Shown: in pieces, positions 5,156-21,740 of the stretch
How positions within the stretch are numbered: position 1 is the first letter of the stretch
Layout of the letters: the number at the start of each line of letters is the position of its first letter
Source of the DNA: an uncultured Pelagibacteraceae bacterium
GTDB taxonomy: Bacteria; Pseudomonadota; Alphaproteobacteria; Pelagibacterales; Pelagibacteraceae
Direction of reading: 5' to 3'
Assembly (NCBI GenBank): GCA_902565385.1
Contig: CACFEW010000003.1
Location: forward strand, 1 to 64,000
DNA length: 64,000 nucleotides
Translations under genes and position numbers: made by a program
Notes under the pieces: model-generated
Seen by the model: only the letters and a program-made list of their open reading frames with translations
The model's database searches: none
Told to the model about the DNA's origin: nothing

Positions 5156-6385
5156 TTATTTTATTAATTTACCCTGTTTAAAAGTTCCTTCTATTACTTT
5201 TCCCATGGCATCAATAAACTTACCTCTTCCATGGAACACATCATTTTTAAAACCACCCTCATATGTCGTACCATTTGGATTAATATAATATCCTGTGCCA
5301 TCTTTTTTATCTTCTTTAAATTCTCCTGAATATTTTTCACCACTGGGCTGTGTTAATGTTCCTTTTCCATTCATCTTACCGTTCTTCCAATCACCTTTGT
5401 ATCTCAAACCATCTACCCAAATATATTCTCCAACCCCATCAAACAAATCGTATTTAAATTCACCTTTATAAATATCTCCACTTTTATATTTGATTGTTCC
5501 ATATCCATGTTTTTTTCCTAATTGATATTTTCCCGAATAAACTTCTGTGACCTCATTTGTAACTTTCTCAACATGATCTAAGACTAAAGCTTCCTTATGA
5601 TATGATTGATAATAACTTGCAGGTAAAATTAAGCTTTTTACAGGTTTGTAATATGGAGGATTTTTAGCTTTGAAAAAATCATCATCAATATGTTTGTTTT
5701 TAAACATAAAGTCATATTCTTTTTCAACATATCTGTCTAAAATTTTCATATAATATTCGTGTTTATTAGAAATTTTTTTGTAATTTTTTTCAGTAATAGT
5801 ATCTAGAATAAAAACTGTATCATGCATATTTGATTTTTTTTCAGTATTAATTAATCTATATTTTTTATCTTTAGAGCAATAGAGAACAAATGCATCATTC
5901 CACAAAGTTTCTTCATACATTATGCAGTCGTAACAACTTATGATTTTAAAATGGGGTTTAAGTTTTAGAAAAAATTCTCCACTAAAAATTAATGGAGCTA
6001 AATAATTTTTAAAATGCTCCTCTTCATCATTAATTTCATTATACCCTTTTACACATTTAGTTATTTTTTCTGCTAAGTCGTAGACTAGCTCTGGTTTCCA
6101 ATTATTTAAAATACTTAAAAGTTTATTGATATTTAAGTTTTTAAAAAAATGAGTAATTTTTCTTTTGTTTTTAGTTTTTTTATTTTCAACTACTTCTATA
6201 TCTTTGTTAACTTTCACTTTCTTCATAAGGTATTTACAAATCTGACATTTTTGTTTACCAGTTAAAATCTTTGGAATTTTGAGTAATTTAAAATTATTAT
6301 CACAATGTTTAGTTTCACATCTTACATGTGCATAAATTGTTTTATTGTTTAAATTTTTTTTCATTTTTTTTGAATCATAATTCAC
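5156..6385 (-). CDS. MORN-repeat protein with N-terminal Cys motif (possible zinc ribbon)
   Basis: N-term 'CETKHCDN...CQICKY'; C-term about five MORN-like units (YKGEFKYDLFDGVGEYIWVDGLRYKGDWKNGKMNGKGTLTQPSGEKYSGEFKEDKKDGTGYYINPNGTTYEGGF). Confidence 0.85.
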   Translation of the reverse strand: MNYDSKKMKKNLNNKTIYAHVRCETKHCDNNFKLLKIPKILTGKQKCQICKYLMKKVKVNKDIEVVENKKTKNKRKITHFFKNLNINKLLSILNNWKPELVYDLAEKITKCVKGYNEINDEEEHFKNYLAPLIFSGEFFLKLKPHFKIISCYDCIMYEETLWNDAFVLYCSKDKKYRLINTEKKSNMHDTVFILDTITEKNYKKISNKHEYYMKILDRYVEKEYDFMFKNKHIDDDFFKAKNPPYYKPVKSLILPASYYQSYHKEALVLDHVEKVTNEVTEVYSGKYQLGKKHGYGTIKYKSGDIYKGEFKYDLFDGVGEYIWVDGLRYKGDWKNGKMNGKGTLTQPSGEKYSGEFKEDKKDGTGYYINPNGTTYEGGFKNDVFHGRGKFIDAMGKVIEGTFKQGKLIK

Positions 6386-6812
6386 TTAACCACCTAGGCC
6401 AAGATCTTGAATTGATATTTCTTTTAAGTTTAAATTCTTTAATAATTATTCTCATTATTTCTGATTTTTTGTAACCTTCTGAATATAGTTCTTTTGCTCT
6501 TTTAATTTTATCGTTCTTTAGCCTCTGGACTTGAGGATCATATTGAACTAGGTTCGATTTATCTCCACCAACATTTCCAATTAATCTTTTATTTCCTTTC
6601 ATTCCTTTTGCTCTTTTTTTCTCAAGTATTCCAGTAAGCTTCTTTCTATCCCTTAATGCTTGCTCAGCCTTAAGTTTATTAGGAAAAATTTGAAGCCCTC
6701 TAAATTCTTTAGGTATATTGCTGTTAGGTGTTTGTGGTGTTGAGAATAATATTTTGTATTGACCATTTAAATTATTTTTATCTACTGGTCTAATTTTATT
6801 ATGGTTACTCAT
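6375..6812 (-). CDS. hypothetical protein, possible C-terminal HTH
   Basis: Overlaps the downstream MORN ORF by 11 bp; 'IKRAKELYSEGYKKSEIMRIIIKEF' is HTH-like. Confidence 0.65.
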   Translation of the reverse strand: MSNHNKIRPVDKNNLNGQYKILFSTPQTPNSNIPKEFRGLQIFPNKLKAEQALRDRKKLTGILEKKRAKGMKGNKRLIGNVGGDKSNLVQYDPQVQRLKNDKIKRAKELYSEGYKKSEIMRIIIKEFKLKRNINSRSWPRWLSEL

Positions 6813-6815
6813 TTA

Positions 6816-7310
6816 TTATTCTGCCCAAAATTTTTTAAATGCATCAATTTTTTCTTGGTTTATATTGTGAAAGACCCAAACCATAGTATTGTATTGATTT
6901 AAAACTCTATCATACGAAATCTTTGATTTTTCAAGGCATTTAATAAATTGAAGTCCTTTTTTTCTTCGGCCCTCAGGTTTATGAATTCCAGCACCACCAG
7001 TATTTTTATCATAGCTAGATATTGGTGTCGTGCCTCTTTTAAGAAGCAAACTTATATAGTGTTTAGATCCAAGCCCAGTCATCTTTCCGAACTCATCTGT
7101 GCTTATTTGGCCTTTACCTAAAATATATTCTCTTGGTTCTCTCTTGTAATTTCCTGAGCCAATAAATTGTTTTTCTTTTATTTTTAACAGCTCTGTTTTT
7201 GTTGAGGCTTTGAAAATTTTACCAGTAGAGGTTTGTTTCCAACACCATAAATTTTCACTTGAATTAAAATAAAAACTATTTTTATCGTAGATCCTTAACT
7301 TTTTAATCAT
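6816..7310 (-). CDS. hypothetical protein
   Basis: 164-aa ORF whose start overlaps the stop of the nuclease-helicase gene by 1 bp. Confidence 0.7.
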   Translation of the reverse strand: MIKKLRIYDKNSFYFNSSENLWCWKQTSTGKIFKASTKTELLKIKEKQFIGSGNYKREPREYILGKGQISTDEFGKMTGLGSKHYISLLLKRGTTPISSYDKNTGGAGIHKPEGRRKKGLQFIKCLEKSKISYDRVLNQYNTMVWVFHNINQEKIDAFKKFWAE

Positions 7311-10300
7311 TACACTTTAATCTCAAATAATAATAGTTTACAAAAATTATTCATTAATCTCATCTCATGAATTGTGTTAGCTGAAGCCAATAAAAGGTTA
7401 GGATTAAATAAAATTATAGCAACATTCTGAGCTCTTGAAATTGCAACATTTAATCTATTTCTATTGAAGAAAAAATCTTTATGACGAGGCAAGTTTTCAG
7501 CATCAGAACTTGTCATAGAAATAAAAACAATTTTGGCTTCTTGACCTTGAAATAAATCTATTGTTCCAACTCTAGTATCCTCTGAATATTTTTTTAATAA
7601 TTTTTGCTTAATGTTGTTTGTTTGAACGTTAAAAGGTGCCACCACCATAATATTGTTTATATCCAATTTGTTTTTGCCTTTTTCATCCTCAAAATTTTTT
7701 CCTATAATTTTAGAATAATAATTATGAATTATATCAGCTTCTTCATCAGATCTTTGAGAGTTTCCAAAATGATCAGTTGGAACAAAGAAAATACCCTCAT
7801 CTTTAATATTATTTAATCCAAGTTTAACAGATCTAGATTGAGTTACTTCATGTGGAATTAATCTAGAGTCATAAAAACTTTCTGAAATATATTTGCAAAT
7901 TTCTTTATTTAATCTTCGTGTTTCTCTTAAAAATATTCCTTGTTCAGGAGGAATAGTATCTCGATCTTCTAAAATATAATCTAAAGAACTAAGTTTAGCA
8001 TAACCATCATGAGTTCCTCTAATTGGTTGTGATAATTGCATTTGATCTCCAATTAATACTAAATTCTTAGAAGATGTTGCCATAGCTATAGTATTTGCTA
8101 ATGAAACTTGACCCGCTTCATCAATAAATAAATAATCTAATTTTTGATTCATTCTGATATTTGAAAAAAACCATGCCGTGCCACCAAATAATAAAAAATC
8201 TTTAGTGTCTATTGGTTTATCTTTAATTATATCAATAATAAATTCACCATTAAAAAGATTTGTGCTGCTACTTTTTTTCATTCCCTTAAATTTAAATTTT
8301 TCAGCTTTAGCTTGTCTCTCTATTTCTGATAATAAATTTTTTATAGCTTCATGGGAGTTACTAGATACGCCAACTTTTTTATCGTCCTTCATAAGTTCTA
8401 TAATTATTTTAGCACTATTATAAGTTTTGCCAGTTCCTGGAGGCCCTTGAATACTTAGACAACTATTCTTCATTTGTTTAACAACCTTTATAGACTCGTC
8501 TGTAATATTTTTATTTTCATCAATTAGTTTTTCTCCTGATTTAATTTTACTTAGATCTGGGTTACCCCTATTTAGAAGATCAAGAACACATTTGTAGCTT
8601 GCACCTTTTAAATTAATATAATTTTCAACAAACCTATTAAGTGCTTGTTCAAGAACCGCTATTTGAGCTGGTCCTCTTCTGCTTAAGGAAAGAACACTAG
8701 GCATTTCTCCTAAGGTCTGATATTTTTTTTCAGTCAATTTAATTTTTACGATATTTTTATTTGGAGAGTCTTCAGTAATTTCGATTATAGAACCAAGGGA
8801 TAGATTTTGATGTGCATTGTATACTGTAGAGTCTTTTTTTAATTTATAATCTTGGTCGTTAAACTGATAAGTAAAAACATATCCTTTCTCAACTTTTTCT
8901 GGTTTGTCAGACTGTAAAAAACAATTTCCGATACACTCAGGATCTTCTTCTAGCTCATCATGAGTTTTATCCATTCGATCAAATGTTTCCCACCACTCAG
9001 GTTTTATTTCTCTTCGATGAAAACCAACAAGATTTTTTATAGTTTCTGTTAATGGATTTTTTGCTATTTCTTTTTTCTCTAGAGATTTTTTAAGTTCAAC
9101 TTCAATTTTCTCCCAATCTTTTTTTTCTGTAGATTTCTTTTCTGTTTCCTCATTTATTGAAAACCAATCAATGCTTTCGGGTTTATTTTGGACTAAAAAT
9201 TCTCTTAGATGAAATGTCGATTCACAGTCATCTTTGTTATATTCGATAATATCTTCTTTTGTTTTTTTATCTTTTGAGGACAACCAAAAATCATACAGTT
9301 TGACACTATCCTCAGCTTTTTTAACATCAGCTGTTCTTTTAAATCCATACAATACTTCTTCAATAGATTTTAATGACATATCTTTTTCTGTTGTTCTAAC
9401 GGATTGGTTTACAATTAAAAAAAGATCAACAAATTTTTCCCCTCGTAAAAGGGAGTCAACAAAATTGCTTCCCTCTGGAAAATCAGAGGAGAATAGGGAA
9501 GCAAGTTGTCTTAAAGATCGTTTTTCATAAGAATTATAATGATAGAGATGAGCTTTTGGGTATTGTTTAAAGTGGCTTTTAAAAAAATTGATTAACTCAA
9601 TAAAGTTCTCTTGTTCATACTTTTTTTTAAAATCTTTAGCCCAGAAATATTTGAACTCCATACCTTTTGGACCTTTAAAATAAACTCCATGCAGATACTC
9701 AAATCCTCTTCCATCTTCTTGCGGGTATCCTTCAATATCAAAAAATAAATCTCCATCATCTGGTTTTGGTAATTTGTAAAATCCCTTACCTTTGTCAGGG
9801 TCTAAAATTATATATTTACTTTTACCAGTTTCTCTTTTCTCCTCCTGAAGCTGGGCTTGACATATTCTGTCTATAAGAGCTTGTTTGTTAATTTTAACTT
9901 TAATTTTTTCAGGATTAGCAGATGCTAGTTTTTTAACCGTATTGATACCAATTTTTTTTAGTTTTTCAATTTGCGATCTATTTATCTTAGCTACTTGATT
10001 TATATAATTATCTTCAGTCCAAATCTTTTCACATTCATCTGTATAATCACAAAAATTACAATGAGAACATTTTTCAGGATAAACTTTTTCTTCGACAATA
10101 TTTTTTAAAAATTTATCAAAATTTTTTTTTGTATAATGATAAAAGTCTATAAATTCTTTTATCTTATATTGGTGAGTTATATCAGCACCGTCTATTAAAT
10201 ACATTCTTTCAGGTAATATTCCTTGAATTGAGCTTAAGATATAGGAGTAAGCGGTAATTTGATAAATGTGTCTTGGTTTAGGTTTTCTAGTTATTTTCGT

Positions 10301-10696
10301 ATCGTATACTTCATAACTAAAATCTCCAAGATCAGATGCGGTTTCAACTTTAATTAAAAAATCAGCTTCTCCCCTAAAATCTCCGTCAATTAAATATGCA
10401 TGATAGATAAGATCATAACCCTTTTTTACTGCTTCTAAAGTTTTTTTATATCTCTCTTCTTCTGTTAAATCTTGCTTGATAGAAATATTTTTTTTGTAAT
10501 ACTTTTTTAAAAGATCAAAGTGTTTCTTTTCATGTTTAATACCAAATTCTTTCCATATCTTTTGATCAATACTCTCCTCATTTCTTTTGATTTCTTTGTA
10601 AAGAAACTTGATTTCATTTTTAATTAAATATTTGCAACTTACAAAATTATTAAGATCACTTGGAGATGTCAAAAATTTCTTATTTTTGATTTTCAT
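7310..10696 (-). CDS. RecB/Cas4-like nuclease fused to SF1 (Dna2/Upf1-like) helicase, TM0106-like family
   Basis: N-term 'SPSDLNNFVSCKYLIKNEI', Cys cluster 'CSHCNFCDYTDEC', HhH-like segment; Walker A 'GPPGTGKT', Walker B 'FIDEAGQ', C-term 'VGTIDLFQGQEAKIVFIS...RLNVAISRA'. Confidence 0.9.
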   Translation of the reverse strand: MKIKNKKFLTSPSDLNNFVSCKYLIKNEIKFLYKEIKRNEESIDQKIWKEFGIKHEKKHFDLLKKYYKKNISIKQDLTEEERYKKTLEAVKKGYDLIYHAYLIDGDFRGEADFLIKVETASDLGDFSYEVYDTKITRKPKPRHIYQITAYSYILSSIQGILPERMYLIDGADITHQYKIKEFIDFYHYTKKNFDKFLKNIVEEKVYPEKCSHCNFCDYTDECEKIWTEDNYINQVAKINRSQIEKLKKIGINTVKKLASANPEKIKVKINKQALIDRICQAQLQEEKRETGKSKYIILDPDKGKGFYKLPKPDDGDLFFDIEGYPQEDGRGFEYLHGVYFKGPKGMEFKYFWAKDFKKKYEQENFIELINFFKSHFKQYPKAHLYHYNSYEKRSLRQLASLFSSDFPEGSNFVDSLLRGEKFVDLFLIVNQSVRTTEKDMSLKSIEEVLYGFKRTADVKKAEDSVKLYDFWLSSKDKKTKEDIIEYNKDDCESTFHLREFLVQNKPESIDWFSINEETEKKSTEKKDWEKIEVELKKSLEKKEIAKNPLTETIKNLVGFHRREIKPEWWETFDRMDKTHDELEEDPECIGNCFLQSDKPEKVEKGYVFTYQFNDQDYKLKKDSTVYNAHQNLSLGSIIEITEDSPNKNIVKIKLTEKKYQTLGEMPSVLSLSRRGPAQIAVLEQALNRFVENYINLKGASYKCVLDLLNRGNPDLSKIKSGEKLIDENKNITDESIKVVKQMKNSCLSIQGPPGTGKTYNSAKIIIELMKDDKKVGVSSNSHEAIKNLLSEIERQAKAEKFKFKGMKKSSSTNLFNGEFIIDIIKDKPIDTKDFLLFGGTAWFFSNIRMNQKLDYLFIDEAGQVSLANTIAMATSSKNLVLIGDQMQLSQPIRGTHDGYAKLSSLDYILEDRDTIPPEQGIFLRETRRLNKEICKYISESFYDSRLIPHEVTQSRSVKLGLNNIKDEGIFFVPTDHFGNSQRSDEEADIIHNYYSKIIGKNFEDEKGKNKLDINNIMVVAPFNVQTNNIKQKLLKKYSEDTRVGTIDLFQGQEAKIVFISMTSSDAENLPRHKDFFFNRNRLNVAISRAQNVAIILFNPNLLLASANTIHEMRLMNNFCKLLLFEIKV

Positions 10697-10967
10697 TTCT
10701 TTTTAGTTCATTATTTAGAACTTTAATCTCAATTTCATTTTTTTTATAGTCATGAACAATTCTTAAATATCTGTAAAGTCTAAGTAAATTATAGGGAATA
10801 TAATAAAAATTAACAATTAACTTTAGTAATGGTTTTGATTTATAATATTCCTCATTAGCTTTTTCTGAAATACTTTTATTTGCTAAGTATACTTCAATAT
10901 TTTGTTTCCATTCTAAACAATAATTAAGTCTATCCCTAATAGTGTTTTTTAATTGATATCTCATATT
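10680..10967 (-). CDS. hypothetical protein (track ORF to 10994; start probably 'ATGAGATATC', overlapping the upstream stop)
   Basis: ORF overlaps the nuclease-helicase start by 17 bp; internal ATG forms an ATGA-type overlap with the upstream 53-aa ORF. Confidence 0.6.
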   Translation of the reverse strand, partial: NMRYQLKNTIRDRLNYCLEWKQNIEVYLANKSISEKANEEYYKSKPLLKLIVNFYYIPYNLLRLYRYLRIVHDYKKNEIEIKVLNNELKRNENQK

Positions 10968-11122
10968 AAGTATTCTGCTATTTGTCTGTAACATTCAGGC
11001 CTTACAGATGATTTTCCAATTATTTTAACTTGGCCGTTTTTAAAGCAATATATCCAATAATAGTGCTGTTTGTTCTCTTCATCAAAAATTTCTTCTATTC
11101 GAATTTCAGTAATTTTATCCAT
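10961..11122 (-). CDS. small 53-aa protein, not in the supplied ORF track
   Basis: Manual translation: MDKITEIRIEEIFDEENKQHYYWIYCFKNGQVKIIGKSSVRPECYRQIAEYLI*; ATGA overlap with the next gene. Confidence 0.6.
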   Translation of the reverse strand: MDKITEIRIEEIFDEENKQHYYWIYCFKNGQVKIIGKSSVRPECYRQIAEYLI

Positions 11123-11149
11123 TAATTCTTGTGGGGTTTTGTTGATTTG

Positions 11150-11204
11150 ACCATGATGCTAGAGAAAGGAGACATACTAGAAAGATGAAAGCTAGCATCA
11201 TGGT
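11150..11204. repeat. perfect 13-bp inverted repeat (ACCATGATGCTAG ... CTAGCATCATGGT), 29-nt loop
   Basis: Read directly: arms 11150-11162 and 11192-11204. Confidence 0.9.
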
Positions 11205-11218
11205 ATTAATGATCATGC

Positions 11219-11252
11219 TTGACAATATATGTAGTTTACTATAAATTGTCAA
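11219..11252 (+). promoter_or_regulatory. palindromic promoter region (TTGACAAT-N18-ATTGTCAA)
   Basis: TTGACA -35-like box inside one arm, TATAAA-like -10 next to the other; upstream of the likely start at 11271. Confidence 0.4.
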
Positions 11253-11270
11253 TAGGTAAACAACATAATA

Positions 11271-12607
11271 TGAAAAAAAGCCATAAAATATATGATGAAT
11301 ATAGTACAGACCTAGAAATCAACGATTCTAGTCCATTGTATAAATCTTGGAATGATAAATGGTTGAGTTATTTAAGGAATTTAAATGGACTTTATGAAAA
11401 CCAACCCCTTACAGAAATAAAATTTAATATTGTAGAGCACTATACTGAGGATGGTCTTGAGAAAGGGGATTTTGACCCATCTACCAATAAAATTATTAGT
11501 AATGAAAAAAATTACAAGGTTATTGATTTATTTGGTGAAGATTACAAACAACTTTTTCTAGAATTTATGAACCTAAATCTAAGCGTTTCTAGTATTGAAA
11601 GCTTTATCAACAAATATGGAACACTTGGCTCTCCAATAGTACAGAGAAAATATTCAGAACAAGGCGAAGATGAGCATAAAAATAACAATATTATTCAGGG
11701 AGAATTAATACAGTGTTGGTATGTAGAAATTAAAAACCTTCAATCATTACTTAAAAATTATCAATATTATCTTAAAAAGGATTTTAAGAAATTAAACGAA
11801 AAATTTAAAATTATTCAAAAGAATGAAACATATTATTGGAGTTTTAAAGAAACAGAAAATTTCGATGAACAATTTCCACTGGTAATTAATTTTTTTTCTA
11901 AAAACTACAATTATCCAGTAACAATTAATAATGAAATAATACAAATTGATAGTGATAATGTTGATCAAATATTTACTGAATATTCTATTGAAGTAATTAA
12001 AAAGTTTTATTCTGAGAGAACTAGAGCTTATATAGATTTAAGTAATAGTTGGTTTAATACAAAATTTGAGCCAAAAGGATTAATAGGTTTTATATGGCAT
12101 CAAGCTATAAAGTTAATTGAGGATAAAAACCAAATCAAAAATTGTAAATATTGTAGTAAAGAATTTGTAATAGGACAGGGTGAGGCAAGAAAAAATAAAG
12201 AGTTTTGCACTAGATCTCATGCAGTCTTGAGCAAAAGAGAAGATAATTTTTCAAATAATATTTCTAAAATTTTTATCAAAAAAGGATATGAAATTAAACA
12301 TCTGGAAAGAGATAGCATGTTTGATTTTGTAGTACTTAAAAATAAAAAGAAGGTTTCAGGAATTAATATTAGCCTATCAGAAAGCTTAGATAGCAAAAGT
12401 AAGAAATGGAATTTCTTGATTCAGAAAAAAATTAAAGAGCCTATGTTGTCAGAGAATTTACAATCTGCATATTTGATTAATAAAAACTTGGATTGTTTTT
12501 TATTTAATAAAAATAATAATCAATTTAAAAAATTAAAATCACCTATGGAATATGATTCTTTAATTAAATTTATAAAAAGTAATGAAAAAGAAACTAAGAA
12601 CAAATAA
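11271..12607 (+). CDS. hypothetical protein with zinc-ribbon/CGNR-like motif
   Basis: 'NCKYCSKEFVIGQGEARKNKEFCTRSHAVLSKRED'; ATG at 11271 preferred over the TTG at 11219. Confidence 0.7.
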
Positions 12608-12884: not shown

Positions 12885-12961
<77 letters not shown>

Positions 12962-12995: not shown

Positions 12996-15524
12996 TTAAG
13001 GTTCTCGTATTTCAACATAGAATTTTAATAAATTAAAAAAATTTGATAAATCGCTGTGATAACTATCACCAAATAAAATTTTTGACCACAATATATCGAG
13101 TTCAGAAACAGAAATGTTATTCATATCTATAGGTTTTATGGAACCATTTTTGAATAGTCTTGTTATATCGTCTTTAAACTTTTGATTAACGAAGTTAAAA
13201 TCTGGAATTATGAATTTTTCTTTAATATAGTTAATTTCTGTCTTTCTAACTCCCCTCTCGTTATTTGATAATTCTTCAAGTTGAAGTTGTCCATATAAAC
13301 TTAGAAACCAAGAGGCTATTAATTTATTATCATTTAAATTTTTTGATTTTAATAGAATAAAATTTGTGGATATTACAGCTTCTTCCTCGATAATAGAAAT
13401 TTTTCCATGCCTTCTGGTTGCTCTAGGGATTAATATTGTACCTTTTTCATAAACTCTTGAACTTTTAAGAATTTTGATTATTTCATCAAAAGTTTTAGAT
13501 TTTTTATATTGAACATTTTTTGTTGATTTATTAAATAAATTTTTAAAGTTTATGAAAATATTTTTCAATTTTTTTTGATCTTTTATAGTAAAATTATTTC
13601 TTGGATTGATAGCTAAATAATCAAAACTTTCTTTATTTATCATAGTTGGTATCATTTCAGAATTTTTTATACCAAGCATAAATTTTTCAGATGGCAATGA
13701 AAGTATTTCTTTTCCCAACTTATTATTTTTATTTGGAAAAATTAAATCACTACCACCAGTATTTCCAGCATTTCCTCTTGGAAGAAAATTACAAGAAAAA
13801 TCAATTTTATTAAATTTACATTTTGATTTAGTTATTAATTTGTAAAAACTTTCATTATTAAAATATTCTTTCCAACCTAAATAATTATTTTTAATTAATT
13901 CTTTTTTTTCAATCTCGCTTATTGAATAATTTTCATTTGAAGAATTATTTTTAAGATCTTTTTCTAGTTTAATATAATCTAAATTTTCTAAATCATTATT
14001 AATTTCAATAAATTTAACTTTGTTTTTTTTTGATTTTTTGTTTCCTATTAACAATAAAGTATTTTTTGCAACATCAGAAAATATATTCTTATGAGGATAA
14101 TTTACTACGTACTCCAAACCAAAATTATTAATTAAATATTCTCTAAACTTTATAGTTTCTTTGGAAAGGCTTGCTAGATATCTTGCAGGAAAAACAAAAA
14201 TAAAATTAGTAGATTTATTAGAAAATGACACACACTGCTCTAAATGTAAGCATTCAACCCCCAATTGACCAATAGACAATTTAGAATTTTCTCTAGTTTC
14301 ATTAAAAATTTTTTTTGCTAACATTTCTTTTTCTTCTGAATTTTCTTTATTAGCGCCTCTCTTGAATGGAGGGTTACAAATTATAATTTTTACTTTGTTA
14401 AAATCATTTTTTTTTAAATCAGTTATATTTTTGTTAGTAATTTTTGCAGAGTTTCCATTACTTTCTAAATTTATAAAATTTAATCTTAAAGTTAGACAAT
14501 CAATAAAATGTTCATCAATTTCATTTGCCCAAAATTGATTATTGGAAATATTTTTATGAAAATTATTTAAATTTATAAATAAATTCCCAATCCCTGCGCT
14601 TGGATCAAATATTAAGTCCTCTTTATTCAATTGTTTTTCTAATATATTTTTTGAAAAGAATGCTACTAAATTTGACAACTCATCATCTGTCGAAGTTATT
14701 ATTCCTTGTTGAGCTTTTTCATAATTTTGATGAACTATGGATTGAATTATAAAACCTAGATCTGAACCATCTTTAAATGATTTGCCTGCTTCAATACCAT
14801 TATCAAATATTTTGAAATCCTTTTTATAATTAATTTTTTTGTTAATTGCTTCAAAACCATTACTAATTAAGATTTTTTCAATTGTATTCTTATTTCTTGA
14901 AATTTTTTTTCCTAAAATTGATCCAACAATATACCCAGATAGTGCTTCAGAAATAATTTCATCCCATAGTTTTTTATTATTATAATTTTTTTGTAATTTC
15001 TTCTCTAATTCTGATAACCCAAACTTCCATTCAGTAATATTTTTGTCAAAAACAAGATTGATAATTGATTTAAGTTCTGTTTCTAATTTTTTTGTAAAAT
15101 TATTAAAACTTTCTTTAGAAAATTCAGCTACTTTAATTGGACTAGGTTTTATCAATTGATGAATTACGGTATCTCGCTTATCAGAATATCTGTACAAATT
15201 TATAATTTCTAAATTTGTTAGAATATAAAATGGTTTTTCCATTTCGTTTTTGAGAGTTTCGGCATAACCCTTGACTTGTTCATTAAAAGCATAATTGAAT
15301 ACGGCAGATCTTGTTCTCTTAATTTCACAAATAAGAACACTTTTTTTATTTTTTTTGTTTTGAAATATATAATCTGGAATTGTACCATTATTTATTTTTC
15401 GATGATGAACCAGTTCATAATTCTCAAAAAAAAATTTATTGTCTAAAAAAATTGGTTTAAATGAAAATTCAAATACTGGATGAAAAACTTTTACCTCATC
15501 ATCAGTGTATTTCGGTAGTTTCAT
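12996..15524 (-). CDS. type IIG-like restriction-modification enzyme (N-terminal PD-(D/E)XK nuclease, N6-adenine MTase, C-terminal specificity region)
   Basis: 'IPDYIFQNKKNKKSVLICEIKR' nuclease motif; 'DPSAGIGNLF' and 'NPPF' MTase motifs. Confidence 0.85.
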   Translation of the reverse strand: MKLPKYTDDEVKVFHPVFEFSFKPIFLDNKFFFENYELVHHRKINNGTIPDYIFQNKKNKKSVLICEIKRTRSAVFNYAFNEQVKGYAETLKNEMEKPFYILTNLEIINLYRYSDKRDTVIHQLIKPSPIKVAEFSKESFNNFTKKLETELKSIINLVFDKNITEWKFGLSELEKKLQKNYNNKKLWDEIISEALSGYIVGSILGKKISRNKNTIEKILISNGFEAINKKINYKKDFKIFDNGIEAGKSFKDGSDLGFIIQSIVHQNYEKAQQGIITSTDDELSNLVAFFSKNILEKQLNKEDLIFDPSAGIGNLFINLNNFHKNISNNQFWANEIDEHFIDCLTLRLNFINLESNGNSAKITNKNITDLKKNDFNKVKIIICNPPFKRGANKENSEEKEMLAKKIFNETRENSKLSIGQLGVECLHLEQCVSFSNKSTNFIFVFPARYLASLSKETIKFREYLINNFGLEYVVNYPHKNIFSDVAKNTLLLIGNKKSKKNKVKFIEINNDLENLDYIKLEKDLKNNSSNENYSISEIEKKELIKNNYLGWKEYFNNESFYKLITKSKCKFNKIDFSCNFLPRGNAGNTGGSDLIFPNKNNKLGKEILSLPSEKFMLGIKNSEMIPTMINKESFDYLAINPRNNFTIKDQKKLKNIFINFKNLFNKSTKNVQYKKSKTFDEIIKILKSSRVYEKGTILIPRATRRHGKISIIEEEAVISTNFILLKSKNLNDNKLIASWFLSLYGQLQLEELSNNERGVRKTEINYIKEKFIIPDFNFVNQKFKDDITRLFKNGSIKPIDMNNISVSELDILWSKILFGDSYHSDLSNFFNLLKFYVEIREP

Positions 15525-16818
15525 TTACAATTGGTGTTTCGATAATTTTGTTTAATATTTTTTCATTATTTCTATTAACAATAATTTTTTTATTCAGTCT
15601 TTTCAATTTAGATTTATTAAGCAAAGACCAGTCAGGCAACTTAATTTCAGCTAATTCATAACGTTGAATTTTAAATAAACCAGATCCTTGATTCCTAGAG
15701 CTATTTATCACTTTAGACTTAAAAATTTTTGAATTTAAAATTATTATCATTGCATTAATTGATAAATGTTTTGGTTTGAGAATATAAAAATTATCTGAAA
15801 CGCATAAGTTTTGATAGTTTTCAAAGAATTCTATATTATCTCTAAAAAAATAGTTAAAGATAATTGGACCCTTCTTTAGATTGTGATTAAAGGATTTTAA
15901 ATTTTTTTTATGAATTTGTTTATATCTTTCTGAAAGATTTTTTTTCAATATATTTGGTATTATTTCCTCAGAACTAAATATGTAAGCATAACTTGGAGTT
16001 ATTAATTTATTATCTTTATTTATATTTGCAGATTTGAGTATAATTTTTTTTGATAAATGAAAATATCTGTCATTTTTAGTTGCTTGAAAAGTTTTTTTTG
16101 AAATTAAACCCAAGCCTCTCTTTATATCTACTAAATTTGATAAGTCGGTAAATCCATTAATTTTACTATCGATTAAATTTTTTTTGTTTAATTTTTCTTT
16201 TTTTAAAATAATTATTTTTGCATCAATTAAAACATTTTTAAAAGGAGTTTTTAATTTAATAACTTTTAAAATTCTGCAATTATTTTTTATTAATTGCATT
16301 AATTTTTTTCCATATTTAGTTTGATCAATAATGTCATCGACAATTAAAGTACAAATGCCCCCATCTTTTAAATCCTGGATTACTTTAAGCAAGAAATAAA
16401 CATAAAGATTACTTTTTTGATCTATTTTTGTTGAATATTGTTTTTCAAATGAAATGATTAATTTCTTTTTAAATTTTTTAGAAATAATTTCATGTCTAAC
16501 ATATGGTGGATTTAAAATTATAAAATCAAATTTTAATTTGGATTTACTTAATAAATAATCTGAATTCTTTAAACTCTTAAAATCAATTTTATTTTTAAAT
16601 TTTGAAATTACTTTGTTATAAAATTTCGTTTCTATCTCGTGACCATATAGTTTAAATTTAATTTTTTTTATCTTAAGCAATGACTCAAAAAAAACACCTT
16701 CACCAAAACAAGGATCTAAAATTTCAATTCTTTTTTTTTTTATAAATTTAATTGAATTTTTCACCATTAGATCTGCTATCTTTTTTGGTGTAAAAAATTG
16801 TCCTTCAGATTTATTCAT
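15502..16818 (-). CDS. N6-adenine DNA methyltransferase (TaqI/Eco57I-like)
   Basis: 'GQFFTPKKIADLMV', 'EILDPCFGEGVF', 'FIILNPPYVRHE'. Confidence 0.9.
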   Translation of the reverse strand: MNKSEGQFFTPKKIADLMVKNSIKFIKKKRIEILDPCFGEGVFFESLLKIKKIKFKLYGHEIETKFYNKVISKFKNKIDFKSLKNSDYLLSKSKLKFDFIILNPPYVRHEIISKKFKKKLIISFEKQYSTKIDQKSNLYVYFLLKVIQDLKDGGICTLIVDDIIDQTKYGKKLMQLIKNNCRILKVIKLKTPFKNVLIDAKIIILKKEKLNKKNLIDSKINGFTDLSNLVDIKRGLGLISKKTFQATKNDRYFHLSKKIILKSANINKDNKLITPSYAYIFSSEEIIPNILKKNLSERYKQIHKKNLKSFNHNLKKGPIIFNYFFRDNIEFFENYQNLCVSDNFYILKPKHLSINAMIIILNSKIFKSKVINSSRNQGSGLFKIQRYELAEIKLPDWSLLNKSKLKRLNKKIIVNRNNEKILNKIIETPIVNETTEIH

Positions 16819-17957
16819 TTTCTAAAAATTGATTTAACACTGTGAGCAAGAAATATACTTAGAAGTGGGGGAACTGCATTCCCAATTTGTTTACATAAAC
16901 TTCTAATGCTAGAGAATTCTGGTGTAAAATAATCTGGAAAGGATTGAATTCTTAAAGCCTCTCTTGGTGTAATAAGTCTTTTTTGACTATAGTGGTAGTT
17001 GGTTCCTACATTTGGTCTATTGAAATAAGTATTTATTGTTGCAGAAAACTTTTTTGGATCCAGTCTCCCATATGTTGTAGTTCTTCCTCCAGTTTTTTTT
17101 ATTCGCATTACTCTCGGTGAAGCTACACTATCAGGAATTTGTTTATAATTTCCACCTGGCTTTATATATTTTATATATTCTTTATCCAAAGGCGACATTC
17201 GTAATTCAAAATGACATGTGATATTATTAGAATTGTTACCATCTCTTAAATATTTTTGATAAAATGTTTTTGGCTTATACTTATATTTAGCCTTATTACC
17301 TTTTAAAACTGGAACTGGAAGATCATCTAATGCTGAAAAAATATTTGTTTTATCAATTTCAATTTCTAATCCAAGATCTGATATTTCAGTATCAAGATTT
17401 AACTTAAGGTATGAGACGATTTTATTTATACTTGGTGTTATTGGTTCGGATAAATTTTTTTTCCAGGCAATTAAAATTTGTCTTTTCCTTGTTTGGGGAA
17501 TTAAATAATTTGTACAGTCAAATTCTTTTATTATTGCGTTAAAACCAAGTTTAGTAATATAATTTACTATATATTCAGTCAGTTTTTTTTTTCCTATATA
17601 TGAATTTTTTATACCTGGAACGTTTTCAAATAAAATAACACTTGGTTTAATAAATTTTATTGTTTTAATAAAGTTAAAAATTTCTTTGCCTCTAGGATCA
17701 TCTTTTTTTCTTTTACCTAAAAGAGAAAATGATTGACAAGGAGGACCTCCTATTAAAACGTCAGATTTAGGTAGTATATTTATAAAATCTTTAATATCTC
17801 CACAGGTGGCTTTCTTTTTTATTAAGTTTTCAAATGATTTGCAGCTGTCTCTATCAATATCATTTGCAAAGATTGTTTCAAAACCTAATCTATTAAAACC
17901 GTAATCAAGTCCACCACAACCGCTATATAAACTTGTAACTGTTAATTTTTTGCTCAT
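16815..17957 (-). CDS. dcm: C5-cytosine DNA methyltransferase
   Basis: 'SLYSGCGGLDYGF', 'GGPPCQSFS', 'FENVPG', 'QIGNAVPP' motifs. Confidence 0.95.
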   Translation of the reverse strand: MSKKLTVTSLYSGCGGLDYGFNRLGFETIFANDIDRDSCKSFENLIKKKATCGDIKDFINILPKSDVLIGGPPCQSFSLLGKRKKDDPRGKEIFNFIKTIKFIKPSVILFENVPGIKNSYIGKKKLTEYIVNYITKLGFNAIIKEFDCTNYLIPQTRKRQILIAWKKNLSEPITPSINKIVSYLKLNLDTEISDLGLEIEIDKTNIFSALDDLPVPVLKGNKAKYKYKPKTFYQKYLRDGNNSNNITCHFELRMSPLDKEYIKYIKPGGNYKQIPDSVASPRVMRIKKTGGRTTTYGRLDPKKFSATINTYFNRPNVGTNYHYSQKRLITPREALRIQSFPDYFTPEFSSIRSLCKQIGNAVPPLLSIFLAHSVKSIFRK

Positions 17958-18001: not shown

Positions 18002-18016
18002 GAGTCACGTTGACTC
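18002..18016. promoter_or_regulatory. palindrome GAGTCA-CGT-TGACTC upstream of the MTase operon
   Basis: Same 6-bp arms and 3-bp spacer as the palindrome at 5002-5016. Confidence 0.4.
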
Positions 18017-18973
18017 ACCCAACTCATTCATTCTTTTACTAACATCTAATAGCTTTAAATTATTATATGTTTTTAGTAGCATCTTAGGATCTGAATGTCC
18101 TGAAATATACATAGTTTCAGCTACAGATAATTTTTTATCTTTCATAAAGTTTGTTAAGGCTTGTCTTCTTAAGTCATGAAATTTTGCATCCTTTATATTG
18201 TAGAATTTACATAAATTACGAAACTGTTTACTTACGGCCATTCCAGATAATCCAAAAGGTAATTTAGTACTTTTCAATAAATCCAATGCTTTTTTAGTTA
18301 AGGGTATCGTTCTTGGTTTAGTTTTAGCTATAGGAATAAACAAGCTTTGATCAATTAAATGATCCTCTTTTATTCTTAGTATTTCACCTTGTCTCATACC
18401 TGTTTCCAATGCAATTTGAATTATAGTTTTAAGTTTTTCAGAAGTTTTATTTCCGTAAATTAAAAGTTTTAGTTCTTTATCTGTAAATCTTCTGTCTCTA
18501 GGCTCAGGTAGCTTTGGCTTTCTAATATCTAAAACTGGGTTATCTATCTTAAAACCCCATTCTTTTCTTGCTATAGAGAATAGGTGAGAGATGACTGCTA
18601 ATCGTCTTTTAACAGAGGAAGGTTGTAAATATTTTAAGGCTCTGTCTCTATATTGTGCAATAATACTATTATTAATCAGGTTTAGTTTAAGATTAATAAA
18701 ATGTTCTTTTAGAAGATATTTAATTAATTTGTTCTCCATACCTTTAGATCTCTTATGGATAGTAATTTCATCTCTATATCTAATTAAACAATCTTTAAAT
18801 AAGGGATAGTTAATTTTTAAAATATCAATTTCTTCCCTAAAGTATTTAAGCTCTATATTTTTAGCCCAAATTTGAGCATCCTTCTTTACTATAAAAGTTT
18901 TAGTAGTTGTCGGATGTCCTTTTATTCTAATTACACACTGCCATTTACCAAGTCTTTTTCTAAAGTACGCCAT
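18005..18973 (-). CDS. tyrosine recombinase/phage integrase
   Basis: 'ALETGMRQGEILRI', 'FHDLRRQALT', 'SGHSDPKMLLKTYNNL' (R...HxxR...H...Y). Confidence 0.95.
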   Translation of the reverse strand: MAYFRKRLGKWQCVIRIKGHPTTTKTFIVKKDAQIWAKNIELKYFREEIDILKINYPLFKDCLIRYRDEITIHKRSKGMENKLIKYLLKEHFINLKLNLINNSIIAQYRDRALKYLQPSSVKRRLAVISHLFSIARKEWGFKIDNPVLDIRKPKLPEPRDRRFTDKELKLLIYGNKTSEKLKTIIQIALETGMRQGEILRIKEDHLIDQSLFIPIAKTKPRTIPLTKKALDLLKSTKLPFGLSGMAVSKQFRNLCKFYNIKDAKFHDLRRQALTNFMKDKKLSVAETMYISGHSDPKMLLKTYNNLKLLDVSKRMNELGEST

Positions 18974-19117: not shown

Positions 19118-19263
19118 CTAGGAAAATCAACGTTTAGAAATTTTGATTTTTTGAAATTTTGTCAAAAAACCCTCTAAAAATTTTTTCATTGTATACCAAA
19201 TTGAGTCCAATCCTTTTTAGCAATGTACTGGTCACCTTAAAATTGATTTGTTATCATATATAT

Positions 19264-19596
19264 ATGGGGAAAAAGGCCAAATGTTATAAATGTAAAAAAA
19301 CTGTAAGTTTACAGATGCCTATTGAGAGAGATTTAGAAGATAGACTAGATATATTCGAATGTATTAAATGTGGAACCAATTTTAAATTAAACGTTCGTCA
19401 GTATCTAAAAAATATTAATAAAAAAAATTTTGTCATAAGTACTTTTTCATCAAAACGTAAATTTTTACAAGAAGACGATTGGGTATTACAACAGGAAACT
19501 GGAAGTCAAAAATTTTTTGCAAAGTATTGGTGGGTAATTGTAATAATTACAGCTATACTGGTAATTTGGGATGATATAAGACACGGTAGAATGTAA
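19264..19596 (+). CDS. small membrane protein with N-terminal zinc-ribbon (CxxC...CxxC)
   Basis: 'CYKCKKTV...FECIKCGTNFKL' plus C-terminal TM 'WWVIVIITAILVIW'; ATG at 19264. Confidence 0.65.
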   Translation: MGKKAKCYKCKKTVSLQMPIERDLEDRLDIFECIKCGTNFKLNVRQYLKNINKKNFVISTFSSKRKFLQEDDWVLQQETGSQKFFAKYWWVIVIITAILVIWDDIRHGRM

Positions 19597-19784
19597 TGGA
19601 AACTTGGCAGATAGTATTAGCAATAATTATAGTTAGTTTATCAATCGTAATGCCAATTTATTATTCATATAAAAAGAAGAAATTAGCTCAGCAACTAAAA
19701 GAGGGCAGAGAGGTTACCGAAAGAGAAAAGATCAGAGTTTATGTAGATAACATTAACCAGAGATTTAGAGATAAACATAAGTGA
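19596..19784 (+). CDS. small single-TM protein
   Basis: N-terminal TM then charged tail; start overlaps the upstream stop. Confidence 0.55.
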   Translation: METWQIVLAIIIVSLSIVMPIYYSYKKKKLAQQLKEGREVTEREKIRVYVDNINQRFRDKHK

Positions 19785-19972
19785 AAATAAGCAAAAAAGA
19801 TTTAAGGGGAACGTATCCTAAATGGATCATGGTTGTATGGTCCATAATTTGTTTAATAGGAGCAGTTTTTGTTTGGCAATATTCTGCAATAGTTTCAGTT
19901 TTGTTGTTAATTGCAAGTTGGACTTTTTTATCATATCTTTGGGGGGCAAAAATTTGGGGTAAATTAAAATGA
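19781..19972 (+). CDS. small two-TM protein
   Basis: GTGA overlap with the previous gene; two hydrophobic segments. Confidence 0.5.
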   Translation: MKISKKDLRGTYPKWIMVVWSIICLIGAVFVWQYSAIVSVLLLIASWTFLSYLWGAKIWGKLK

Positions 19973-20400
19973 AAACAAAAAAAACAAAAAAAACAAAAAA
20001 AAAACAACCTCAAAGTAATCATTTTAAAAAAATTTCTAATAAAACATTTTCTGATTGAATGCAGCATTTGATCGATAATTTTGATATTGAATGGCTCGAT
20101 AGTCATACAAATCGTGAAGTAATGATTTTACCAATGGGTCTACAAACTTATTTTGCTGACTATCTGCAAGAATTAGGAACATATGTAAGAATGAATGGAA
20201 TTGATTTAACAACTGTTTCTTGCAAGAAAATGCACGGGGAAATCTCAAATTTTACTAAAACTGAATATAAAAATTTCTCTAAAAGCAAAAAAGACATAGA
20301 CACAATTTTTTTTGCATACTCTTATTCATTGGCCACTTTATGCTTAACTGATAGAACTGTTAGAAAATTAGTTGGGGTAAAAAAAGGTTTTTTTGGTTAA
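19969..20400 (+). pseudogene. gene interrupted by in-frame TGA (20056-20058) or Lys-rich leader plus downstream ORF
   Basis: ATG at 19969 encodes MKTKKTKKTKKKQPQSNHFKKISNKTFSD, then TGA, then in-frame MQHLIDNFDIEW... to 20400. Confidence 0.5.
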
Positions 20401-20813
20401 TAATCATTCAAAAAAACAATACTACTAATTATTTTTTCATATTCATAAGCTTTTTTCTTCCCGCTTAAATAGTCTTCATTTTTTAAATTTTCCTCATTAT
20501 GAATAAGACAACATTTACGCCATAAATCAAAAGCTTCTTTTCTTGTTACACCCCAGGTTCTATGAAAACGTTCATGAACAAGATTTGCGAGTTCATTAGA
20601 AAAATTTTCATCTCCAACAAACTTATCTAACCCGGTAGTATGTATATAAATTACTATTACAAAATAAAAAAAGCTTTGTGCTTCAAGATTTTTTTCTTTT
20701 AATTTTTTTACTATTTTAGGAAACTCCTTTTCGACTATTTTAACATCCAGATCATAAATTATTGAAACATGTTTGGTTAAATCTTTAAAGTATTTATAAG
20801 GGTTGTTGGGCAT
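20397..20813 (-). CDS. hypothetical protein
   Basis: 138-aa ORF. Confidence 0.6.
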   Translation of the reverse strand: MPNNPYKYFKDLTKHVSIIYDLDVKIVEKEFPKIVKKLKEKNLEAQSFFYFVIVIYIHTTGLDKFVGDENFSNELANLVHERFHRTWGVTRKEAFDLWRKCCLIHNEENLKNEDYLSGKKKAYEYEKIISSIVFLNDY

Positions 20814-20822
20814 TATCTAAAT

Positions 20823-21398
20823 CTAACCAGTTTTAATATCTTCGGAACCATAACATATTGACTGTGCTTCTGTGATTTTCTCAGGTAGTCCATCTAGTTT
20901 CCAGTTGTTATCTTTTATATCAAAGTATTCATCTGGATCAAAACCTTGATTACCAACTAACGTAATTCCAAAAAAATTGTCATGATTATACCATGCCATC
21001 ATTGAGTTAATCATTTTCTCTATATCTTTAAGTCCTGGTGCTTGCATCAAAACTAAGTTCATATAGTTAAACATTGGCTGAACCATAATAACCTCAACCT
21101 CAAGATCTTCCTCATGTCCGTTAATTTTAATAGGAATTAATTTATTTTGTAAATTTTTGATATTTTCATTTTCTTTTTTGGTTGAAAAAGAAAAAACAAT
21201 GTTCATTCTCGCACAATCATTTTTTCTAATAATTAAACTTAATTTATCACCCCATATAACTTCACCAGGTTTAGTTGTTACTATAAATTCATCGGAAGTT
21301 ATTACATTCCAATCATCTTCATTTGCTTGAGCCTGATAAGCAATTATTAATAAAAATAAAAATAGATGTAATGAAATAAAGACAATAAAACGCTTCAT
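20823..21398 (-). CDS. hypothetical secreted protein
   Basis: Signal-peptide-like N-terminus 'MKRFIVFISLHLFLFLLIIAYQAQA'. Confidence 0.65.
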   Translation of the reverse strand: MKRFIVFISLHLFLFLLIIAYQAQANEDDWNVITSDEFIVTTKPGEVIWGDKLSLIIRKNDCARMNIVFSFSTKKENENIKNLQNKLIPIKINGHEEDLEVEVIMVQPMFNYMNLVLMQAPGLKDIEKMINSMMAWYNHDNFFGITLVGNQGFDPDEYFDIKDNNWKLDGLPEKITEAQSICYGSEDIKTG

Positions 21399-21692
21399 GG
21401 TTTTGGCTCCTTTTTTGTGGTTAATAATTTGTAATTGGTAATGGTTTCACTCCTCTTCTTATCAAGAGGTTTACGAAGGAAGGAAAATAATGAAAAAAAA
21501 CATAAACGTGAGAAAAGGAATGAAATCCAACGCATGATTCTATTAAAATCAAGTCTTGTTGTTTTTATTTGGACTCAAATTTGTTTAAAAAAAGAAATTT
21601 TTCTAAATGATTGTATACCAAATTGTGTAAACGAATTTACACTTTAGTAATAAGTCAATCATTTGAATGTTAATTTTAGTTCTCTAAGATCT

Positions 21693-21740
21693 CTCATAAT
21701 GTATTGGTCCCAGGTTCGAGTCCTGGCGGGCCCACCAAAT
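21693..21740 (+). repeat. att-like tRNA-Met(CAT) 3' fragment, copy 2
   Basis: 48-bp identity to 19070-19117; no tRNA 5' half upstream. Confidence 0.9.

What the first reader, a model, noticed from the sequence alone, without database searches (positions are those of the whole stretch)
5156..11122. Six-gene coupled operon around a Cas4/RecB-like nuclease-SF1 helicase fusion with a MORN-repeat protein: candidate undescribed defence/DNA-processing system
Seen: on the minus strand, 53 aa > ~95 aa > 1128-aa nuclease-helicase > 164 aa > 145 aa > 409-aa MORN protein, every junction overlapping or separated by at most 3 bp. Known: Cas4/RecB-like nucleases with a Cys cluster and SF1 helicases are recurrent parts of anti-phage systems. 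Inference: the five partners are orphan-like, and strict coupling plus an island location suggest one functional unit. A MORN protein as a partner of a nuclease-helicase is unusual.
Basis: partly seen in the sequence, partly recalled or inferred. Interest (0 to 1): 0.78.

Follow-up and report, generated by a model that had tools for sequence, protein, structure and literature searches.

The report
SAR11 nuclease-helicase operon, AddAB-slot relative
In an ocean SAR11 bacterium, a mobile DNA island next to restriction-modification genes carries a Dna2-like DNA-shredding enzyme with small partner proteins; relatives of these proteins sit, in other SAR11 genomes, in the exact chromosomal place where related bacteria keep their main DNA-break enzyme AddAB, which SAR11 lacks.

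Summary
The six coupled genes are real, plus an overlooked 28-aa leader ORF. They are not one conserved six-gene system. The conserved core, in four SAR11 genomes, is (28 aa)-53 aa-94 aa-nuclease/helicase. The 164/145-aa pair recurs behind the same 94-aa family with a small PD-(D/E)XK nuclease instead of the nuclease-helicase; MORN is optional. The 94-aa family marks exchangeable nuclease modules: 53 of 59 copies lie within four genes of ExoI, RmuC/DUF2130, PD-(D/E)XK or the nuclease-helicase. These modules use two SAR11 sites: a tRNA-Val/tRNA-Met island site (this window, with integrase, att repeats, R-M genes) and the slot upstream of trxA-folC-accD-trpAB, which holds addBA in other alphaproteobacteria. 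AddA is absent from 62/62 SAR11 genomes tested, present in about 53/56 other alphaproteobacteria. The enzyme belongs to the known, uncharacterised TM0106 (TIGR03491) family, whose relatives elsewhere sit in defence neighbourhoods. Best reading: a DNA-end-dependent helicase-nuclease that destroys cut foreign DNA, from a pool that also fills the AddAB position. No experiment supports this yet. New variant of a known kind.

The parts
11115..11201 (-). 28-aa hydrophobic leader ORF (MMLAFIFLVCLLSLASWSNQQNPTRING); its stop overlaps the start of the 53-aa gene
   Evidence: conserved in L007, L008, L037 with an in-frame 3-nt indel
10961..11122 (-). F53: 53-aa small protein, SAR11 family found in 25 of the mapped loci, often beside F95
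10680..10964 (-). F95: 94-aa protein, modelled as one long helix; recurrent partner of nucleases in SAR11
   Evidence: 58/357 genomes; 53/59 copies within 4 genes of a nuclease family; model
7310..10696 (-). NH: 1128-aa TM0106-family RecB/Cas4-like nuclease (Fe-S cysteines) + RNase_H_2 (DEDD exonuclease-like) + SF1B Upf1/Dna2-like helicase
6816..7310 (-). F164: 164-aa accessory protein, recurs with F145 in other F95 modules
6375..6812 (-). F145: 145-aa accessory protein, weak C-terminal HTH-like match
5156..6385 (-). MORN-repeat protein with orphan Cys-containing N-terminus, optional
11219..11252 (.). inverted repeat TTGACAA-N20-TTGTCAA in the divergent promoter region, candidate operator/promoter
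   Evidence: arms invariant in four homologous regions
11219..12607 (+). F462: divergent gene (445 aa from the ATG at 11270), conserved beside the operon in L007, L008, L037
12582..12833 (+). F83: small protein behind F462; relatives precede F53/F95 in other modules
12996..15524 (-). BpuSI-like type IIG restriction-modification enzyme on the same island
15502..16818 (-). N6-adenine methyltransferase
16815..17957 (-). C5-cytosine methyltransferase
18005..18973 (-). tyrosine integrase of the island
   Evidence: 93% identical copy in L037
19070..19117 (+). att copy: 48-nt 3' part of tRNA-Met(CAT)
21693..21740 (+). second identical 48-nt att copy, beside mlaC

Best explanation
The operon is an island-borne member of a SAR11 pool of exchangeable DNA-end nuclease modules. 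Its effector, the 1128-aa nuclease-helicase, most likely loads on free DNA ends (for example phage or plasmid DNA cut by the neighbouring restriction enzymes), unwinds them with its 5'-3' SF1B motor and degrades the strands with its Fe-S RecB/Cas4-type nuclease and its DEDD-type exonuclease domain: a single-chain functional counterpart of AddAB/RecBCD or Dna2. The 53- and 94-aa proteins (and the 28-aa peptide) are SAR11-specific small partners that regulate, tether or load whichever nuclease occupies the module. The 164/145-aa pair is an optional, probably DNA-binding accessory and MORN a passenger. In other SAR11 genomes the same protein families occupy the former addBA position beside trxA. 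SHOWN: domain content, intact catalytic residues, neighbourhood statistics, absence of AddA, synteny of the slot, island features. INFERRED: end-dependence, DNA degradation, the role of the small proteins, the defence role.
For: Domains and residues: nuclease, RNase_H_2 and helicase detected; nuclease, DEDD and Walker residues conserved wherever alignable in 29 homologues; helicase nearest to Upf1/IGHMBP2/Dna2 among solved structures. Small-partner link: F95 within 4 genes of a nuclease family in 53/59 cases, same strand in 52; F53-F95 directly before NH in W, L007, L008, L037, whose NH belong to one supported clade. Slot: AddA over cut-off in 0/62 SAR11 vs 43/56 other alphaproteobacteria, about 10 more below cut-off; addB-addA-trxA>folC<accD<trpA<trpB<trpF<pyrF<ihfB<rpsA in L110 vs RmuC-PD(D/E)XK-ExoI-trxA>folC<... 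in SAR11 and NH/F95/RmuC/ExoI variants there. SAR11 reported to lack RecBCD and RecF (PMC12374537). Defence: integrase, att repeats, R-M genes on the island; the tRNA-Val/tRNA-Met site nearly empty in complete genomes; C5-methyltransferase in 8/13 island NH loci vs 0/11 slot loci, Fisher p=0.002; plasmid homologues near WYL regulators, ubiquitin-like cassettes, restriction endonucleases, HEPN, TIR, Abi or RmuC genes.
Against: No activity has been shown for any member. The own genome already has an ExoI-PD(D/E)XK-trxA slot (L121), so the island copy is an extra, and repair versus defence cannot be separated by genomics. The island/slot contrast in methyltransferases may only reflect that islands collect R-M genes. 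Slot loci within a genus are orthologous, so the 53/59 count is not 53 independent events. No usable fold for F164; F95 gives only a helix.
Confidence: 0.6

Rival explanations
1. Stand-alone anti-phage system: the nuclease-helicase is an effector kept inactive by F53/F95 and released by infection, independent of restriction cuts.
For: Small tightly coupled upstream genes and a conserved promoter repeat; defence neighbourhoods of distant NH homologues; island hotspot.
Against: The same small proteins accompany quite different nucleases, including those in the AddAB slot, which fits a general nuclease partner better; distant homologues lack them in the plasmid maps; no sensor domain identified.
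Confidence: 0.2
2. Host DNA repair: the operon is a recombination/end-resection gene set that happens to ride on an island, compensating for the loss of AddAB.
For: Same families in the addAB slot; AddA absent; Dna2-like architecture.
Against: The own genome keeps ExoI and PD-(D/E)XK in the slot (L121), so the island copy is not needed there; NH found in only 18 of 357 genomes; island copies travel with R-M genes.
Confidence: 0.15
3. The six-gene operon is one dedicated, undescribed defence system.
For: Strict coupling; F164-F145-MORN also follow F95 in L048, though with a different nuclease.
Against: Only this one genome has the six-gene set; close relatives at 82-87% identity (L007, L037) lack 164/145/MORN behind or near the nuclease-helicase (L037 ends inside the gene).
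Confidence: 0.05

Closest known systems
TM0106 family RecB-like putative nuclease (TIGR03491), long form with SF1 helicase
   Same: Full-length match; 33-36% identity over 99% of the protein to plasmid-borne proteins of about 1110-1150 aa carrying this name
   Different: No function assigned in the annotation; SAR11 members of the window's clade travel with F53/F95, which are not annotated near the plasmid members examined
AddAB / RecBCD helicase-nucleases
   Same: Fe-S RecB-family nuclease plus SF1 helicase; related gene sets occupy the addBA chromosomal slot in SAR11
   Different: Single chain, SF1B (Upf1/Dna2-type) not SF1A (UvrD-type) motor, extra DEDD domain, no AddA match
Eukaryotic Dna2
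   Same: Cas4/RecB-like nuclease N-terminal to an SF1B helicase; helicase matches Dna2 structures
   Different: Has an RNase_H_2 domain between nuclease and helicase; bacterial operon context
UvrD-Cas4 fusion proteins (PMC5704561)
   Same: Cas4-like nuclease-helicase fusion, reported in contexts with Dcm/Vsr or type III R-M genes
   Different: Different helicase (UvrD, SF1A) and nuclease family (pfam12705)
Shield (RmuC-domain defence system, PMC10270631)
   Same: RmuC nucleases, shown there to act in phage defence, recur beside F95 in SAR11
   Different: No RmuC in the window operon

Membership tests
TIGR03491 (TM0106 family) | score above the curated cut-off | tested here: met
   251 bits vs cut-off 97.45
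AddAB | AddA (TIGR02784) match above cut-off | tested here: not met
   no AddA model among the matches of the protein; no genome of 62 SAR11 over cut-off
AddAB | ATP-dependent dsDNA end resection | not testable with these tools
   needs biochemistry
Dna2-like nuclease-helicase | RecB-like nuclease with Fe-S cysteines and SF1B helicase in one chain | tested here: met
   orthology to Dna2 not claimed
UvrD-Cas4 fusion | UvrD-like SF1A helicase fused to a pfam12705 nuclease | tested here: not met
   helicase matches AAA_11/AAA_12 and IGHMBP2 models, nuclease matches TIGR03491
Mokosh | full-length MkoA or MkoC match | tested here: not met
   only helicase stretches 840-1091 and 918-1112 are the best matches
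Any PADLOC-DB 2.0.0 system | operon proteins matching the models of one system | tested here: not met
   five of six proteins have no match at all
Shield | ShdA RmuC-domain core protein | tested here: not met
   no RmuC match in the operon

The most novel reading that the evidence does not exclude
SAR11 replaced AddAB by a swappable set of single nucleases and nuclease-helicases run by dedicated small adaptor proteins (F53/F95), the same set serving double-strand-break end processing from the old addAB slot and phage-DNA destruction from tRNA islands; the window operon is a mobile copy.
Probability: 0.35. Interest if true: 0.8.

Novelty: new variant of a known kind. Interest (0 to 1): 0.6.

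Why it matters
SAR11 are reported to lack RecBCD and RecF yet to recombine heavily (PMC12374537). A locus in the addBA position filled by exchangeable nucleases with recurrent small partners gives concrete candidates for how they process DNA ends and destroy phage DNA. It would also help give a function to the widespread TM0106 nuclease-helicase family.

Tried and rejected
Phage origin of the small proteins: no match for F164, F145 or F95 in 50,697 phage records, nor for F164, F53, F145 or F95 in IMG/VR by pattern scan (the F95 alignment itself could not be scanned). Named systems via PADLOC: none. Fold of F164: single-sequence model with pLDDT 38, discarded, no fold search made. Homology of F95, F164 and F145 to solved structures: none credible. 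Strict six-gene system: rejected by neighbourhoods. MORN as key partner: rejected, common in SAR11. Literature searches for TM0106 nuclease-helicases and for MORN repeats in phage defence found nothing.

Full report
Observation. The window is a Pelagibacter (SAR11) contig: its nearest named relatives are Pelagibacter genomes. The six minus-strand genes exist as described, with junctions of -4, -17, -1, +3 and -11 bp. A seventh, 28-aa hydrophobic ORF overlaps the start of the 53-aa gene and is conserved in three relatives with an in-frame 3-nt indel. An inverted repeat TTGACAA-N20-TTGTCAA lies in the divergent intergenic region, its arms invariant in the four sequences compared.

The large protein. 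It passes the TM0106 model (TIGR03491, 251 bits, cut-off 97) and carries RNase_H_2 and SF1 helicase domains. Its helicase is closest to Upf1, IGHMBP2 and Dna2 among solved structures. In an alignment of 29 homologues the RecB-type residues, the DEDD-type residues and the Walker and motif VI residues are kept wherever the sequence can be aligned, with a few single exceptions outside the nuclease centres. The window protein has cysteines C21, C210, C213, C216 and C222, as expected for a Cas4/AddB/Dna2-type Fe-S site (assignment from general knowledge); two of them are replaced in the L040/L041 branch. It can be expected to work as an ATP-driven nuclease-helicase, but I found no report of a tested member.

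Is it a six-gene system? No. Among 357 genomes of the family, 18 carry the nuclease-helicase; only the window's has 164-145-MORN behind it. The 53-aa and 94-aa genes, however, directly precede it in L007, L008 and L037, and the 94-aa gene also in L045 and L057. The 94-aa family (F95) was found in 58 of 357 genomes (the weakest few matches are doubtful). In the mapped loci 53 of 59 F95 genes lie within four genes of ExoI, RmuC, DUF2130, a PD-(D/E)XK nuclease or the nuclease-helicase, 52 on the same strand. F145 and F164 recur in such modules with a small PD-(D/E)XK nuclease in place of the nuclease-helicase (L042, L048; F145 alone in L049; L043 with ExoI and another PD-(D/E)XK; F164 alone near a DISARM-like DrmA in L044). 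So the nuclease position is exchangeable and the small proteins are the more constant part. Many of the 59 cases are orthologous, so they are not independent events.

Two genomic sites. (a) In most SAR11 genomes examined, RmuC, PD-(D/E)XK and ExoI, or variants with the nuclease-helicase, a 529-aa GHKL-like protein, WGR, F95, F53 and DUF2130, stand directly upstream of trxA, followed by folC, accD, trpA, trpB, trpF, pyrF, ihfB and rpsA on the other strand. The window's own genome has ExoI and PD-(D/E)XK there (L121). In another alphaproteobacterium (L110) the same flank carries AddB and AddA, both confirmed by their NCBIfam equivalog models; addA-trxA adjacency is seen in several more (L106, L107, L111, L114, L115, L117, L119). 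AddA reaches its cut-off in 0 of 62 SAR11 genomes and in 43 of 56 other alphaproteobacteria, with about ten more long matches below it. A 2025 study also reports that SAR11 lack RecBCD and RecF (PMC12374537). Two further AddA-negative alphaproteobacteria also have an ExoI relative beside trxA (L134, L135). (b) The window's operon lies on an island with a tyrosine integrase and two identical 48-nt copies of the 3' part of tRNA-Met(CAT), next to mlaC. In complete SAR11 genomes this site is tRNA-Val - tRNA-Met - mlaC with almost nothing between the tRNAs (L173, L174, L177), whereas other genomes carry F95 modules or C5-methyltransferases there (L178, L048-L050, L175). The left end of the window's island lies beyond the contig.

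Defence or repair? The island has a BpuSI-like type IIG enzyme, an N6-methyltransferase and a C5-methyltransferase. C5-methyltransferase genes accompany 8 of 13 island nuclease-helicase loci and 0 of 11 slot loci (Fisher p = 0.002), although islands collect R-M genes in general. Plasmid-borne homologues (33-36% identity, full length) lie near WYL regulators, ubiquitin-like conjugation cassettes, RmuC, HEPN, TIR and Abi genes, or directly before an AAA ATPase and a restriction endonuclease. These are typical contexts of defence genes. Against a purely defensive reading stands the use of the same families in the addAB slot. I therefore favour a DNA-end-dependent helicase-nuclease that removes cut foreign DNA, from a pool that also serves end processing.

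Not resolved. The biochemical role of F53 and F95, the folds of F164 and F145, whether MORN matters, and whether defence or repair dominates.

Noticed in passing
12885-12961 (-): A complete initiator tRNA-fMet gene on the island, identical over 77/77 nt to a second copy on another contig of the same genome (G000:C2); the nine other SAR11 genomes with a match show one copy each.
   Followed up: partly
11150-11204: 13-bp inverted repeat ACCATGATGCTAG...CTAGCATCATGGT over the 28-aa ORF; the RNA strand folds with z = -5.2, left arm only partly kept in L008 and L037.
   Followed up: partly
19118-21692: 2.6-kb segment between the two att copies, with small ORFs of unknown function: a tandem or remnant element.
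   Followed up: no
L044 2652-7984: DISARM-like DrmA with adjacent MZB-type ORFs (possibly a split DrmB) in a SAR11 genome, close to an F164 relative.
   Followed up: no
L038 11537-13126 and homologues: 529-aa protein with a GHKL-ATPase-like N-terminus (read by eye) and a HELSH metalloprotease-like motif near the C-terminus, no Pfam match, recurrent in the addAB slot with WGR and RmuC.
   Followed up: no
L184, L185, L186 (plasmids of Aminobacter and Rhizobium): TM0106 nuclease-helicase followed directly by a ~1080-aa AAA ATPase (all three) and a restriction endonuclease (L184, L186), divergent WYL regulator in two: possibly a distinct system; other plasmid homologues sit with ubiquitin-like cassettes (L153, L155).
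   Followed up: partly
L124 4152-5588 and 2324-3421: SAR11 slot ExoI matches the PADLOC model RTasSbcB and an L038 RmuC matches RTasRmuC (both reverse-transcriptase-associated DRT components), without any reverse transcriptase seen in the slot.
   Followed up: no
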